A stretch of 64,000 nucleotides of DNA from Methanobrevibacter millerae. GTDB lineage: Archaea; Methanobacteriota; Methanobacteria; Methanobacteriales; Methanobacteriaceae. Shown here piece after piece: positions 2,543-37,571 of this stretch; positions within the stretch are counted from its first letter, which is position 1, and the number at the start of each line of letters is the position of its first letter. The translations under genes were made by a program, and so were the position numbers. The notes beneath the pieces are model-generated. The model saw only the letters and a list, made by a program, of their open reading frames with translations. It was not told the origin of the DNA and searched no databases. Where the stretch lies: contig NZ_CP011266.1 of NCBI RefSeq assembly GCF_001477655.1, forward strand, positions 2,402,001-2,466,000. The letters run 5' to 3'.

Positions 2543-2587
2543 CAAAATTAATATATAAAATAAAATTCATAATATAATCTTGTAAAA

Positions 2588-2615
2588 ATATTGTTCGTAT
2601 AAAGACGAACAATAT
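2588..2615. promoter_or_regulatory. 11-bp perfect inverted repeat upstream of nrdD; candidate MsvR box
   Basis: ATATTGTTCGT (2588-2598) and ACGAACAATAT (2605-2615) are perfect inverted repeats around a 6-nt centre. The core reads TTCG-TATAAAGA-CGAA (2594-2609), which fits the TTCG-N7-9-CGAA pattern that I recall for binding sites of the methanogen redox regulator MsvR. The right arm runs directly into the likely TATA element (about 2612-2621) of nrdD, a position where a bound repressor would block TBP/TFB. MsvR itself is encoded at 35339-36109. That the site is real is inference. Confidence 0.6.
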
Positions 2616-2648
2616 ATATACAACAACTGACCAATATTATAATTAAGT

Positions 2649-2691
2649 GATTAGTATAGACAGAGTGCTCTGTCACTTATTTTTACTAATC
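2649..2691 (+). promoter_or_regulatory. nested inverted repeats in the nrdD leader
   Basis: An outer pair GATTAGTA (2649-2656) / TACTAATC (2684-2691) encloses an inner pair GACAGAG (2659-2665) / CTCTGTC (2668-2674). A third pair, AAGTGA (2645-2650) / TCACTT (2673-2678), overlaps both and would compete with them. With a TATA element near 2612-2621, transcription should start near 2640, placing this structure at the 5' end of the nrdD mRNA, 28 nt before the start codon. It could be an RNA switch or a second operator. Confidence 0.45.
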
Positions 2692-2718: not shown

Positions 2719-5037
2719 ATGGAAAAAAGTTCAGAAATAGGAAATAATTTAAATAAATCCGTTAAAATCAATGTAGAAAAAAATAACGGAATTAAAGAAA
2801 GATTCAGCTATGAAAAATTATTAAAATCATTAGTTATGGTCGAAACTCCATTCTTTGAATCTGATAAAATTGTAGCTACTGTCGTATCCCAATTATATGA
2901 TGGAATCACTACAAAAGAAATTAAAAAAATAGTTTATGAATGTTTAGAAGACATTGACGGTGAAATTGCTAACAAATACTTAGCAAGTACCCAATTAAAA
3001 GTACGTACTTCAAGAGATACTATTGAAGCATTCGATTTATCAAAAATCGCTAATACTTTAATTGAAGAAACCGGGGCAAGCCAAGAAACAGCTTTTGAAA
3101 TAGCTACCGAAACTTGGAAAGAACTTAAAAAATTAAATGTCGAATACTTAACTGCTCCAATGATAAGGGAAATCGTCAACACAAAATTAGTTGAATACGG
3201 ACTTGAAGATTTAAGAAGCCGTTACACCCGTTTAGGTATTCCTGTTTACAACATTACCTCTTTAATCGAAAACGGTAACAGAGATAATGCAAACATGATT
3301 CACAACCCTGAAAGTATCCACAAACATGTGGCAGACGAAGCATTGAAACAATATGCATTATTAAAAATGCTTCCAGCAAACTTGGCTGATGCACACATGT
3401 CCGGAGACATTCACATTCACGACTTAGAATTCTTCGCAGGAAGACCATTAAACTGTATGCAACACGATATCAGAACTTTCATCAAATACGGACTTAAAGT
3501 AGACGGTACCGGGGACCACACATCCATTGCAGGTGCACCAAACCACATGGAAACTTTAATGAACCACACTGGTGAAATCATGCTTGCAGCACAACAAAAC
3601 ATGTCCGGTGGACAAGGAATGTCTCTCTGGAATGTATTTGTAGCTCCATTTGCAAGAGGCAGAACCTACGATGAAATCAAACAGTCCGTGCAAATGCTTG
3701 TTTACAACCTGAACATGGCTTACGCAGCTCGTGGATCACAAGTACCATTTACAAGTATGGCATTGGAATTCGGTGTTCCTAATTTCTTAAAAGATGAAAC
3801 CGCTTACGGACCAAAAGGTAAAGTAGTAGGAACATACGGAGACTTTGAAGAAGAAACCAGATTAATCCAAAGAGCATTCACTGAAACATTACTCGCAGGA
3901 GATAATGAAGGAAAACCTCACTTATTCCCAAATACAATTTATACCTTACGTGAAGAAACAATGACCAGTGAATACGAAGAAGACATCCGTTTAGTTCACG
4001 AATTATCTGCGAAATACGGTTCATCATACTTTGTAAACATGTTAGCTGACTACAGAGGAGATATGGCTAACTACATGGGATGCAGAACCTGTTTACAAGA
4101 CAACTGGACTGGTGACTGGGACCAAGACTGTTTAAGAACAGGTAACTTAGCATACGTAACATTAAACCTTCCAAGAATCGGATACCAATCAAGAGATGAA
4201 TCCCAAGTATTTGAATACTTAGATGAATACATGGATTTAGCAACCGAAACATTAATGCTTAGAAGAGAACAAGGTTTAAAATGTTTAAATGACTTCCACA
4301 TTTTACCATTCTTAAAACAAAAAGTAGCTGAAGATTCATACTACAGAATCCAGAACTCAACATTATCATTTGGTTTTGTCGGACTTAACGAAATGTTACT
4401 TTCATTATTCGGCGAAGGTATTGAAAACCCAGATGCAAACAAATTCGGTATCAAATGTCTCGAATACATTAATGAAAGAGCAAACAAATTAAAAGAAGAA
4501 ACTGGACTCAGATGGTCTGTATTACAAACCCCTGCTGAATCTACTGCTTACAGATTTGCAACTCTCGATAAAAAACAATTCGGAGACCAAGTCATTGTAC
4601 AAGGTGACGGTAATGCTAACTACTACACCAACTCATCTCATGTGCCAGTAGATACCTCCGCATCATTAATTGAAAAAATCAAAATAGAAGAGCAATACCA
4701 CCCATTAACTCCAGGTGGACACATCTTCCATGCATTCATGGGTGAATCATACTCAGATCCAGATTCATTAATGAGCTTAACCAATAAGATTGCAAGAAAA
4801 TCAGACATAGGTTTCTGGGCTTACAGTTCCGCATTAAGTTTCTGTTTAAAATGTAAAACATTGATGAAAGGATTAAATAATGTTTGTCCTACCTGTGGTG
4901 AAAGTGAAGATGTAGAATGGTATGACAGAATTACTGGATACGTACAACAAGTAGGTCGTGCAAAATCTGCATCAGGTGGTTGGAACCCAGGTAAACGTCA
5001 AGAATTAATTGACAGAAGAAGATTTGAAGATAACTAA
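2719..5037 (+). CDS. nrdD: anaerobic ribonucleoside-triphosphate reductase (class III)
   Basis: Makes deoxyribonucleotides from NTPs using an oxygen-sensitive glycyl radical. The 772-residue protein starts with an ATP-cone regulatory domain (about residues 15-105). It ends with a four-cysteine zinc site (CLKC ... CPTCG) followed by RITGY, whose glycine (about residue 740) aligns with the radical glycine of E. coli NrdD (RVCGY). The ATG at 2719 is preceded by a GGTG ribosome binding site. No activase gene nrdG lies next to it; the next genes are a toxin-antitoxin pair. The promoter carries a candidate MsvR box and a structured leader, so redox control is plausible. Identity is secure. Confidence 0.96.
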   Translation: MEKSSEIGNNLNKSVKINVEKNNGIKERFSYEKLLKSLVMVETPFFESDKIVATVVSQLYDGITTKEIKKIVYECLEDIDGEIANKYLASTQLKVRTSRDTIEAFDLSKIANTLIEETGASQETAFEIATETWKELKKLNVEYLTAPMIREIVNTKLVEYGLEDLRSRYTRLGIPVYNITSLIENGNRDNANMIHNPESIHKHVADEALKQYALLKMLPANLADAHMSGDIHIHDLEFFAGRPLNCMQHDIRTFIKYGLKVDGTGDHTSIAGAPNHMETLMNHTGEIMLAAQQNMSGGQGMSLWNVFVAPFARGRTYDEIKQSVQMLVYNLNMAYAARGSQVPFTSMALEFGVPNFLKDETAYGPKGKVVGTYGDFEEETRLIQRAFTETLLAGDNEGKPHLFPNTIYTLREETMTSEYEEDIRLVHELSAKYGSSYFVNMLADYRGDMANYMGCRTCLQDNWTGDWDQDCLRTGNLAYVTLNLPRIGYQSRDESQVFEYLDEYMDLATETLMLRREQGLKCLNDFHILPFLKQKVAEDSYYRIQNSTLSFGFVGLNEMLLSLFGEGIENPDANKFGIKCLEYINERANKLKEETGLRWSVLQTPAESTAYRFATLDKKQFGDQVIVQGDGNANYYTNSSHVPVDTSASLIEKIKIEEQYHPLTPGGHIFHAFMGESYSDPDSLMSLTNKIARKSDIGFWAYSSALSFCLKCKTLMKGLNNVCPTCGESEDVEWYDRITGYVQQVGRAKSASGGWNPGKRQELIDRRRFEDN

Positions 5038-34640: not shown

Positions 34641-35342
34641 ATGGCTGAAAGAGGAAAATTATATGGAATTGGTGTTGGACCTGGAGATACTGAATTATTA
34701 ACTTTAAAAGCTGTTAGAATATTGGAATCCGTACCGGTAGTTTTTTCACCAAAATCCTCAAAAGAAAAGGAAAGTATAGCACTTTCAATCGTCAAACCAG
34801 TGATTGAAGGTAGGGATGACTATAAAAAATTAATGCTAGTAGAACCAATATTTCCTATGATTGAAGACAAAGAAGAACTTGAAAAGGTCTGGACATCAGC
34901 TTCCGAGATGATTGCACAATATCTAGATACAGGACGCGATGTTGCATTCATAACCCTTGGTGACCCTTCAATTTTTAGTACTTACTCATATGTTCAAAAG
35001 AAACTGAAAGGAGCCTATGATATTGAAACCGTTCCTGGAATCACTTCATTTACAGCCTGTGCTGCTGCTCGTAATGAAGCATTGGTTGAACAAAATGATA
35101 TTTTATCTGTTGTTCCTAAAATTGATGACAGATTAAATGATGTAATGGAATACAGCAATGCGATAGCTTTAATGAAAGCATCAAGAAACATGCGCAAACT
35201 GGAATTGAAAATTGAAAACAACAAACGCACTACAGACATATATTCCGTTCAAAACTGTACCCGAGAAAATGAAAAAATAATTGATGGCTTTTCAAAGGAT
35301 AAACCTTATCTTACTACAACCATCATAAAACTGGATGATTAA
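34641..35342 (+). CDS. cbiL: cobalt-factor II / precorrin-2 C20-methyltransferase
   Basis: SAM-dependent methyltransferase that methylates C20 during cobalamin-type corrinoid synthesis; methanogens need corrinoids for methyl transfer (Mtr). The 233-residue protein has the tetrapyrrole methylase pattern: LYGIGVGPGDTELLTLKAVR at the start, the ITLGDPSIFSTYSY loop and the VPGITSFTACAA motif. GTGATA precedes the ATG. The 3' end overlaps the convergent msvR by 4 nt. No other cbi genes are in the window. Confidence 0.94.
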   Translation: MAERGKLYGIGVGPGDTELLTLKAVRILESVPVVFSPKSSKEKESIALSIVKPVIEGRDDYKKLMLVEPIFPMIEDKEELEKVWTSASEMIAQYLDTGRDVAFITLGDPSIFSTYSYVQKKLKGAYDIETVPGITSFTACAAARNEALVEQNDILSVVPKIDDRLNDVMEYSNAIALMKASRNMRKLELKIENNKRTTDIYSVQNCTRENEKIIDGFSKDKPYLTTTIIKLDD

Positions 35343-36109
35343 TTCGTATTGAGAGTTAATGGTTCAACTTCAAAAACACATTTGCCATCACCCATAGTAT
35401 AACATTGAATTTCAATTACGCTTACAGGTGAATTGAAGTATTCAGAAAACAATGCTTCAAAGATACCAGTATCTAAAAAGCATGCAGGTTTTCCTGTTTT
35501 TGGCAACAGTTCACATTCAAAACAGTCTTTAGAAGTGATTTTTATTATATCACCTATTTCAAATGAGACCCTTCCCAAACCCTTGTTTTTCCAAAATTTA
35601 GCAATATTGTCCAAGAATATTTCCAGATTATCATCATATAATAAATCGAATAATGATTTGCCGATTTGATTACCCGTTGCCTGCAGGACAGGATCTATAT
35701 TTATTCCCTCCTGGATAAGCATTGACCTTAAAGTATGGAATAATAAGACAGTGAAATCACCATCATCATTAATGATATTATTAATTAAGTAATCTTTTTG
35801 GGTTTCTTCAAGCTCTTTTTGTTCAGATAAGTTAACGGAACCCAAATATTTTGAATTAATGTAAAAAATCTTTTTTCTATTATCCTCAGGATGAATTTTA
35901 TATGACACTATTCCCAATTCTCTTAAGCTTTTCAAGTGTACAGAAACAGTAGATTTGGATTTACCAGTATTTGAGACAATTTCATCAAATTCCATTTCAC
36001 TATCCCTTAACATTTCCAAAATAGTGAGTTTTACTGGACTTTTAACTACATTAACACCTATATTGTTTTCAGAATTGGAGAATATTTGAATTGGTTTTTC
36101 ATCACCCAT
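35339..36109 (-). CDS. msvR: redox-sensing transcription regulator MsvR (HTH plus V4R domain)
   Basis: 256-residue regulator. Residues about 25-90 form an ArsR-like winged helix (VKLTILEMLRDSEMEFDEIV, then STVSVHLKSLRELGIVSY). The C-terminal half is a V4R domain with five cysteines (CFEC, KPAC, IQCY, GKCV). This is the layout of MsvR, the methanogen-specific V4R regulator. In Methanothermobacter MsvR lies next to and controls the F420H2 oxidase operon fpaA-rlp-rub, with redox-active cysteines switching DNA binding. Here it is divergent from fpaA, which supports the call strongly. It overlaps the cbiL 3' end by 4 nt. Confidence 0.9.
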   Translation of the reverse strand: MGDEKPIQIFSNSENNIGVNVVKSPVKLTILEMLRDSEMEFDEIVSNTGKSKSTVSVHLKSLRELGIVSYKIHPEDNRKKIFYINSKYLGSVNLSEQKELEETQKDYLINNIINDDGDFTVLLFHTLRSMLIQEGINIDPVLQATGNQIGKSLFDLLYDDNLEIFLDNIAKFWKNKGLGRVSFEIGDIIKITSKDCFECELLPKTGKPACFLDTGIFEALFSEYFNSPVSVIEIQCYTMGDGKCVFEVEPLTLNTN

Positions 36110-36344
36110 TAATTTACACCTCTTAACTTTATTTTAAATTTTTAACTTAATATAATTAACTAAAATTATATTAAAAATTGAATAAATGCTATGATAAAAA
36201 ATCAATAAATTTCTCAACTGTTCAATTAATCAAACGAACTATTCATTAAAACAAAATCTATATATAGTTAACATTTACATAGATATATTTAATCTATATG
36301 TTTATTCGTATGGATTGAAACAAAATTAATATGAGGAATATAAT
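36110..36344. promoter_or_regulatory. divergent msvR / fpaA control region
   Basis: 235-bp AT-rich intergenic region with promoters in both directions. TATA-like runs for fpaA lie around 36260-36268 and 36283-36291. A TTCGTA half-site (36305-36310) lies 35 nt before the fpaA start, and GTTC (36220-36223) / GAAC (36236-36239) form a weak inverted pair containing CGAA. No exact TTCG-N7-9-CGAA site was found here, so autoregulation must use degenerate sites or differ from the Methanothermobacter model. Confidence 0.55.
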
Positions 36345-37571
36345 ATGAAAGCTAACGCTCAAAAAATAGCCGAAGGAGTATACTGGATTGGTGTTCTTGA
36401 CTGGGATTTAAGAAGCTACCACGGATACACCTTAGATGGAACCACTTACAATGCATACATTGTATTTGGAGAAGACAAAGCAGCAATCATTGATAATGCT
36501 TACCCTGGAAAAACCGCTGAAATGATGGCACGTATCGATGATGCATTCGCACAAGAAGGAAGAGATGTAAAAGTTGACTACATCATCCAAAACCACGTTG
36601 AAAAAGACCACTCCGGTGTTTTATATGACTTACACAAAAGATTCCCTGAAGCACCAATCTACTGTACAGAAATTGCAGTAAAAGGACTTTTAAAACACTA
36701 CCCTAAATTAGAAGGTGCAGAATTCATTACTGTTGGAACCGGCGACACATTAGATGTTGGTGGAAGAACCTTAGCATTTTTAGATGCTTTCTTGCTCCAC
36801 TGGCCGGACAGCATGTTTACCTTACTTGCTGATGACACTGGAATTTTATTCCCTAACGACGCATTCGGTCAACACTTATGTTACACCAAAAGATTCAGTG
36901 ACGAAATCCCTGAATACGTATTAATGGATGCTGCTCAAAAATTCTACGCAAACTTAATTACCCCACTTTCAAAATTAGTACTTAAAAAATTAAATGAAGT
37001 TGTAGAATTAGGATTACTCGATCAAATCAAAGTAATTGCACCATCCCACGGTCAAATCTGGACTGACCCAATGCAAATTATCGGAGCATACCAAAACTGG
37101 GCAACTGGTGTATGTGAAGACAAAATCACAATCATCTACGATACAATGCACTACTCAACCCAAACCATGGCTCACGAAATCGCTGAAGGTGCAATTTCCG
37201 AAGGATACGATGTTGAAATCTTCTTCTTACACGAAGATGAAAGATCAGAAATCGTTAAAAGTATCTTAACCAGTAAAGGAGTTGCAATCGGTGACCCTAC
37301 AATCAACGATGTACCATACCCAAGTATCGGAGACATCATGTACTACTTAAAAGGTCTCTTATTCAACAGAACCGGTATTGAAAGAAAAGCTGTTACCTTT
37401 GGTTCCATGGGTGGAAGAGGAGGAGCTCCTGCTAAACTCGCTGAAGAATTAGGTAACTGTGGATTTGATATTGTAGACACTCAAGAAATTTACTTCATCC
37501 CAACCGAAGATGAAAACGAAGCAAGCTACGAATTAGGTAAAAAATTAGCACAAGCTTGTAAAGAATTATAA
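36345..37571 (+). CDS. fpaA: coenzyme F420H2 oxidase (flavodiiron protein)
   Basis: Reduces O2 to water with F420H2, protecting the methanogen from oxygen. The 408-residue protein has a metallo-beta-lactamase domain with the diiron motif HVEKDH (residues 84-89) and a C-terminal flavodoxin domain (from about 255, [15 protein letters not shown]) that binds FMN. GAGGA precedes the ATG. Its codon use looks strongly biased toward highly expressed codons. It heads an operon with rubrerythrin and is divergent from msvR; together they form an oxygen-response module. Confidence 0.95.

What the first reader, a model, noticed from the sequence alone, without database searches (positions are those of the whole stretch)
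2588..2615. Candidate MsvR operator in front of nrdD, far from msvR
A perfect 11-bp inverted repeat with core TTCG-N8-CGAA abuts the nrdD TATA element. The recalled MsvR-box pattern is TTCG-N7-9-CGAA, and msvR is encoded 33 kb away in the same window. NrdD is destroyed by oxygen, so MsvR control would extend the known O2-defence regulon (F420H2 oxidase operon) to DNA-precursor synthesis. I am not aware of a description of this target.
Basis: partly seen in the sequence, partly recalled or inferred. Interest (0 to 1): 0.72.

Follow-up and report, generated by a model that had tools for sequence, protein, structure and literature searches.

The report
Conserved MsvR-type operator before nrdD
A palindromic DNA switch site, matching the known binding site of the oxygen-stress regulator MsvR, sits against the start signal of the oxygen-sensitive DNA-building-block gene nrdD in every related gut methanogen checked, so these archaea probably tie DNA precursor supply to their redox defence; binding is not yet shown.

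Summary
Window 2588-2615 is ATATTGTTCGT-N6-ACGAACAATAT, overlapping the nrdD TATA element. The loose pattern TTCG-N7-9-CGAA is at chance level in window and genome. Conservation makes the case: 42 of 42 nrdD promoters of the same genus carry GTTCGT-N6-ACGAAC (38 perfect, 4 with one mismatch; shuffles never below two), and 31 carry two or more copies, each beside its own TATA. The same palindrome precedes deoC and a DUF2097 gene in nearly all of these genomes. Half-site, 6-bp spacing and position at BRE/TATA match the MsvR-bound msvR/fpaA region of Methanothermobacter, whose decamer CTATACGAAC recurs in that species' nrdD promoter. NrdR is absent. Published M. ruminantium RNA-seq shows F420H2 oxidases, deoC and nrdD induced together by lauric acid (PMC5816558). 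Against MsvR: one near-complete genome without any V4R protein keeps the nrdD site, and msvR and nrdD half-sites do not associate significantly across lineages. Operator function: very likely; MsvR as binder: about 0.7; redox derepression of nrdD: inferred.

The parts
2588..2598 (.). Left arm of the operator palindrome (half-site GTTCGT 2593-2598)
   Evidence: the first five letters GTTCG are kept in all but one of 75 sites
2605..2615 (.). Right arm of the operator palindrome (half-site ACGAAC 2605-2610); overlaps the BRE position and the TATA element
   Evidence: arms conserved while the middle of the spacer varies
2580..2623 (.). Extended imperfect inverted repeat, 19-nt arms
2612..2621 (+). 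TATA-like element of nrdD, ATATATATAC, directly behind the operator
   Evidence: TATA-like element mostly 2 to 6 bp from the right half-site
2649..2691 (+). nrdD leader hairpin (outer arms GATTAGTA/TACTAATC, inner stem 2659-2674 GACAGAG/CTCTGTC)
   Evidence: no Rfam match
2719..5037 (+). nrdD, anaerobic (class III) ribonucleoside-triphosphate reductase, 772 aa
   Evidence: Pfam NRDD 9e-169 plus ATP-cone
35339..36109 (-). msvR, candidate regulator (HTH_5 + V4R), with the KSKST.S.HL recognition helix and the three conserved V4R cysteines
36345..37571 (+). fpaA, F420H2 oxidase (flavodiiron), the known MsvR target, divergent from msvR
   Evidence: known target per PMC3729527 (citing Karr 2010)
36304..36321 (+). 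Degenerate copy of the same operator in the fpaA promoter, near the expected start site (ATTCGTATGGATTGAAAC; G003 has ATTCGTATGGATTCGAAC at this place)
   Evidence: p=0.001 by shuffling
36234..36239 (+). Second half-site ACGAAC in the msvR-fpaA intergenic region
   Evidence: conserved in fpaA promoters of relatives

Best explanation
The palindrome is an operator for the thiol-redox regulator MsvR. A homodimer binds the two GTTCGT/ACGAAC half-sites. Because the right half-site lies on the BRE directly upstream of TATA, bound (reduced) MsvR would block TFB/TBP and hold nrdD down. When V4R cysteines are oxidised MsvR would let go, nrdD would be induced together with fpaA and deoC, and oxygen-damaged NrdD would be replaced while F420H2 oxidase removes O2. 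Shown: the site, its conservation, its place at TATA, its match to the msvR/fpaA region, shared operators at deoC and DUF2097. Supported by published data: co-induction of F420H2 oxidase, deoC and nrdD under one stress. Inferred: binding by MsvR, repression rather than activation, the redox trigger.
For: 42/42 genus nrdD promoters with at most 1 mismatch; also present in g3, g6, g9 promoters. Same palindrome at deoC, 24 of 25 with at most 2 mismatches, and DUF2097, 26 of 27. M. thermautotrophicus msvR/fpaA intergenic region has GTTCGTATATCATCGAAT and CTATACGAAC-TTC-TATATAAT, and its nrdD promoter has CTATACGAAC. Genus g2 has GTTCGTGTTCTAACGAAT between fpaA and msvR. fpaA and msvR promoters score above shuffles with the nrdD matrix in most genus members. 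Recognition helix and three V4R cysteines conserved in nearly all lineages compared. No NrdR. Apart from msvR, no transcription-factor gene was recognised among the inspected one-mismatch sites. M. ruminantium with lauric acid: fprA2 +3.58, fprA1 +1.37, deoC +5.12, nrdD +1.47 log2 (PMC5816558); its fprA (next to msvR) and nrdD promoters carry the half-sites, deoC a 3-mismatch version.
Against: Genome G100 (99% complete, about 300 contigs) has no V4R protein by two searches yet keeps GTTTGTCTTAGTACGAAC at nrdD; the gene may sit in an assembly gap. Across 31 genomes, nearly all outside the genus, half-sites at msvR and at nrdD do not associate significantly (p=0.14); some lineages keep MsvR but lack the nrdD site. 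In many genus members the msvR promoter carries the half-sites everted (ACGAAC-N-GTTCGT) rather than as the nrdD palindrome. In M. acetivorans a TTCGN8CGAA inside rpoK was not bound (PMC3729527), so sequence alone is not sufficient. Lauric acid is not an O2 treatment.
Confidence: 0.68

Rival explanations
1. The palindrome is the operator of another, unidentified HTH regulator of deoxynucleotide metabolism (nrdD, deoC, DUF2097), a functional counterpart of bacterial NrdR, whose half-site resembles that of MsvR or that shares sites with it.
For: Best shared targets are dNTP-related (nrdD, deoC) and their sites are cleaner than those at fpaA/msvR; a V4R-free genome keeps the nrdD site; weak cross-lineage association.
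Against: Requires two regulators with the same half-site, spacing and TATA-adjacent placement; no other autoregulated transcription-factor gene was recognised among the sites inspected; fprA2 is co-induced with nrdD and deoC in M. ruminantium; the Methanothermobacter msvR-promoter decamer recurs at nrdD.
Confidence: 0.25
2. Same site, but MsvR (or another protein) acts as an activator recruiting TBP/TFB, so nrdD is switched on under reducing conditions.
For: Some archaeal activators bind directly upstream of the BRE (general knowledge, for example Ptr2 of Methanocaldococcus); NrdD is needed in normal anaerobic growth.
Against: The right arm covers the BRE and in the window part of the TATA element; MthMsvR at the equivalent place blocks TBP/TFB (PMC3729527 citing Karr 2010); at deoC the site lies downstream of TATA near the expected start, which fits repression.
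Confidence: 0.2
3. NrdR box.
For: nrd genes are NrdR targets in bacteria (general knowledge).
Against: NrdR is absent from the host genome; only 2 of 151 genomes of the order pass the cut-off. The motif also differs from the recalled NrdR box.
Confidence: 0.01
4. Chance palindrome, or an RNA hairpin/terminator of the upstream polC gene.
For: AT-rich intergenic DNA; the loose MsvR pattern is at chance frequency.
Against: 42/42 conservation with fixed half-site letters (GTTCG, CGAAC) and a variable spacer, not covarying arms; the same motif precedes unrelated genes; it lies upstream of the TATA element.
Confidence: 0.02

Closest known systems
MsvR boxes of the msvR/fpaA intergenic region, Methanothermobacter thermautotrophicus (Karr 2010, summarised in PMC3729527)
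   Same: Half-site GTTCGTA/TACGAAC, 6-bp gap between the six-letter half-sites (TTCGTA-N4-TACGAA), AT-rich flanks, half-site 2-3 bp upstream of TATA
   Different: The nrdD site is more perfect, often duplicated as operator-TATA units 54-60 bp apart, and lies 33 kb from msvR
M. acetivorans MsvR boxes A/B at its own promoter (PMC3729527)
   Same: TTCGN7-9CGAA inverted repeat directly upstream of TATA/BRE, bound only by reduced protein
   Different: The only target shown there is msvR itself; FpaA-homologue promoters were not bound; nrdD was not named in the text searched
Bacterial NrdR regulon
   Same: Transcriptional control of ribonucleotide reductase genes
   Different: Different protein family and motif; NrdR is absent here

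Membership tests
MsvR operator | Inverted repeat TTCG-N7-9-CGAA, ideally TTCGTA-N4-TACGAA | tested here: met
   TTCGTATAAAGACGAA: one letter off TTCGTAN4TACGAA; many relatives match it exactly
MsvR operator | Placed at BRE/TATA or the start site of the target promoter | tested here: met
   TATA-like element mostly 2 or 5 bp from the right half-site across 75 sites; start site not mapped
MsvR operator | AT-rich flanks (17 bp each side under 20% GC in M. acetivorans) | tested here: inconclusive
   Read: 17 bp left of TTCG holds 3 G+C (18%), 17 bp right of CGAA 4 G+C (24%): AT-rich, one side slightly above the tested value
MsvR operator | A redox-competent MsvR (HTH + V4R with three conserved cysteines) in the same genome | tested here: met
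MsvR operator | The same motif at the msvR/fpaA promoters of the same organism | tested here: inconclusive
   Present only as a degenerate copy in the window (score 4.0 against 31.0 for nrdD, p=0.001), clear in G003 (19.2) and several relatives
MsvR operator | Binding by reduced MsvR, lost on oxidation | not testable with these tools
   needs gel shift or footprinting
NrdR regulon | NrdR protein encoded in the genome | tested here: not met
   TIGR00244 absent from G000

The most novel reading that the evidence does not exclude
The palindrome defines a lineage-wide operator family (nrdD, deoC, DUF2097, in part fpaA/msvR) read by a so far unidentified archaeal dNTP regulator that replaces NrdR, or by MsvR acting as a global regulator of DNA-precursor supply rather than only of O2 removal.
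Probability: 0.3. Interest if true: 0.68.

Novelty: new member of a known kind. Interest (0 to 1): 0.55.

Why it matters
How archaea without NrdR control ribonucleotide reductase is, to my knowledge, little studied. A conserved operator shared by nrdD, deoC and an uncharacterised gene in rumen and human gut methanogens gives a directly testable redox (or dNTP) regulon, names DUF2097 as a candidate for function, and would extend MsvR from autoregulation and one O2-defence operon to DNA-precursor metabolism.

Tried and rejected
The generic pattern TTCG-N7-9-CGAA as evidence: rejected, chance frequency. NrdR box: rejected, gene absent. RNA element at the palindrome: no Rfam match and it lies upstream of TATA. 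Other one-mismatch sites: near CDC48 (228-283 bp away) and in copies flanked by tatctactac repeats; treated as unrelated to the regulon because distant or repeat-borne. Lineage association of msvR boxes with nrdD boxes: not significant. Reading Karr 2010 in full: not held. A paper search for MsvR with ribonucleotide reductase found only a review that does not link them.

Full report
Observation. The window lies in a 2.54-Mb single-contig genome (G000); the closest loci found are Methanobrevibacter, including M. millerae. Positions 2588-2598 and 2605-2615 form a perfect 11-bp inverted repeat, 6 bp apart, extending imperfectly to 19-bp arms. The right arm runs into the TATA-like ATATATATAC. nrdD starts at 2719. 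msvR and fpaA are divergent at 35339-37571.

Chance. The loose pattern TTCG-N7-9-CGAA carries no weight: two hits in the window against one expected, and fewer in the genome than the reversed control. The extended form GTTCGT-N6-ACGAAC has one perfect copy in the genome, this one.

Conservation. In 42 nrdD promoters of the same genus (the window plus 41 loci) the best site has 0 mismatches in 38 and 1 in 4; shuffled promoters never got below 2. Thirty-one promoters have two or more copies (29 two, 2 three), the copies spaced 54-60 bp where two adjoin. Nearly every site has a TATA-like element 1-6 bp from its right end, most often 2 or 5. Outer half-site letters GTTCG and CGAAC are near-invariant and the middle of the spacer varies, the mark of a protein-binding site, not of an RNA stem. 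Sister genera g3, g6 and g9 keep it, g9 with several copies; two termite-gut loci keep GTTAGTATAAAAACGAAC at TATA; Methanosphaera and Methanothermobacter keep half-sites such as TATACGAAC. Many termite-gut lineages lack it.

Regulon. The same palindrome lies about 20 bp before the start codon of deoC (24 of 25 promoters with at most 2 mismatches; the host copy is ATTCGTATATTAACAAAC) and directly upstream of TATA at a DUF2097 gene (26 of 27). The host DUF2097 copy is weaker, 3 mismatches. LigB dioxygenase genes and an operon holding an unidentified small protein carry it in a few species.

Which protein. In M. thermautotrophicus delta-H (recognised by exact genome length, 1,751,377; my knowledge) the msvR/fpaA intergenic region reads GTTCGTATATCATCGAAT, then CTATACGAAC-TTC-TATATAAT before msvR. 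PMC3729527 describes the MsvR boxes there as a partial inverted repeat TTCGTAN4TACGAA overlapping BRE/TATA of msvR; which letters are boxes 1, 2 and 3 is my mapping, since the original paper is not held. The decamer CTATACGAAC recurs in the nrdD promoter of the same genome. In genus members fpaA carries ATTCGTATGGATTCGAAC near its expected start or GTTCGTATAAAACAAAAC beside its TATA, and many msvR promoters carry ACGAACAGTTCGTA. Scored with a matrix from nrdD sites, most of these exceed shuffles, some lineages do not. Genus g2 has GTTCGTGTTCTAACGAAT between fpaA and msvR. The MsvR recognition helix and the three V4R cysteines are conserved. NrdR is absent.

Independent expression data. In M. 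ruminantium M1 treated with lauric acid, 147 of 2280 genes changed. The up-regulated ones include fprA2 (+3.58), fprA1 (+1.37), deoC (+5.12) and nrdD (+1.47 log2) (PMC5816558). In that genome (G113, recognised by length) nrdD has two-mismatch sites, an fprA gene directly upstream of msvR, presumably fprA2, has half-sites on both sides of its TATA, and the deoC homologue found (36% identical) has GTTCTAAATATAACTAAC after its TATA. In the text read the authors did not link these genes to one regulator; the link is mine.

Counter-evidence. G100, 99% complete, lacks any V4R protein yet keeps the nrdD site. Association of msvR and nrdD half-sites across lineages is not significant. The rpoK result in PMC3729527 shows that the pattern alone does not suffice for binding.

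Mechanism. By position, binding would cover the BRE and prevent TFB/TBP loading, as reported for the msvR promoter. Reduced MsvR binds in M. acetivorans and oxidation releases it (PMC3729527, PMC7278568). The most likely logic is derepression of nrdD on oxidation. Shown: site, conservation, geometry, shared targets. Inferred: MsvR, repression, redox trigger.

Noticed in passing
window 2649-2691: Hairpin in the nrdD leader, present in most species with long leaders and absent in those with short ones; 2 of 5 consensus pairs show compensatory changes; no Rfam match.
   Followed up: partly
L138, L170 and other deoC loci (host genome C1:1948106): deoC carries the same palindrome just downstream of TATA, with the right half-site consistently ACTAAC or ACAAAC.
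   Followed up: yes
L344-L373; host genome C1:2368928-2369218: A DUF2097 protein of unknown function shares the operator with nrdD and deoC (right half-site usually ACAAAC); a second DUF2097-like gene lies close by in tandem.
   Followed up: partly
L147, L148: A LigB-type (DODA-like) dioxygenase gene carries the palindrome in two species.
   Followed up: no
L152, L153, L135: A similar palindrome occurs in copies flanked by tatctactac sequences near integrase-like or phage-type genes, possibly a mobile element.
   Followed up: no
G009, G042, G062 and others: Several genus members carry a second, 41-50% identical MsvR paralogue.
   Followed up: no
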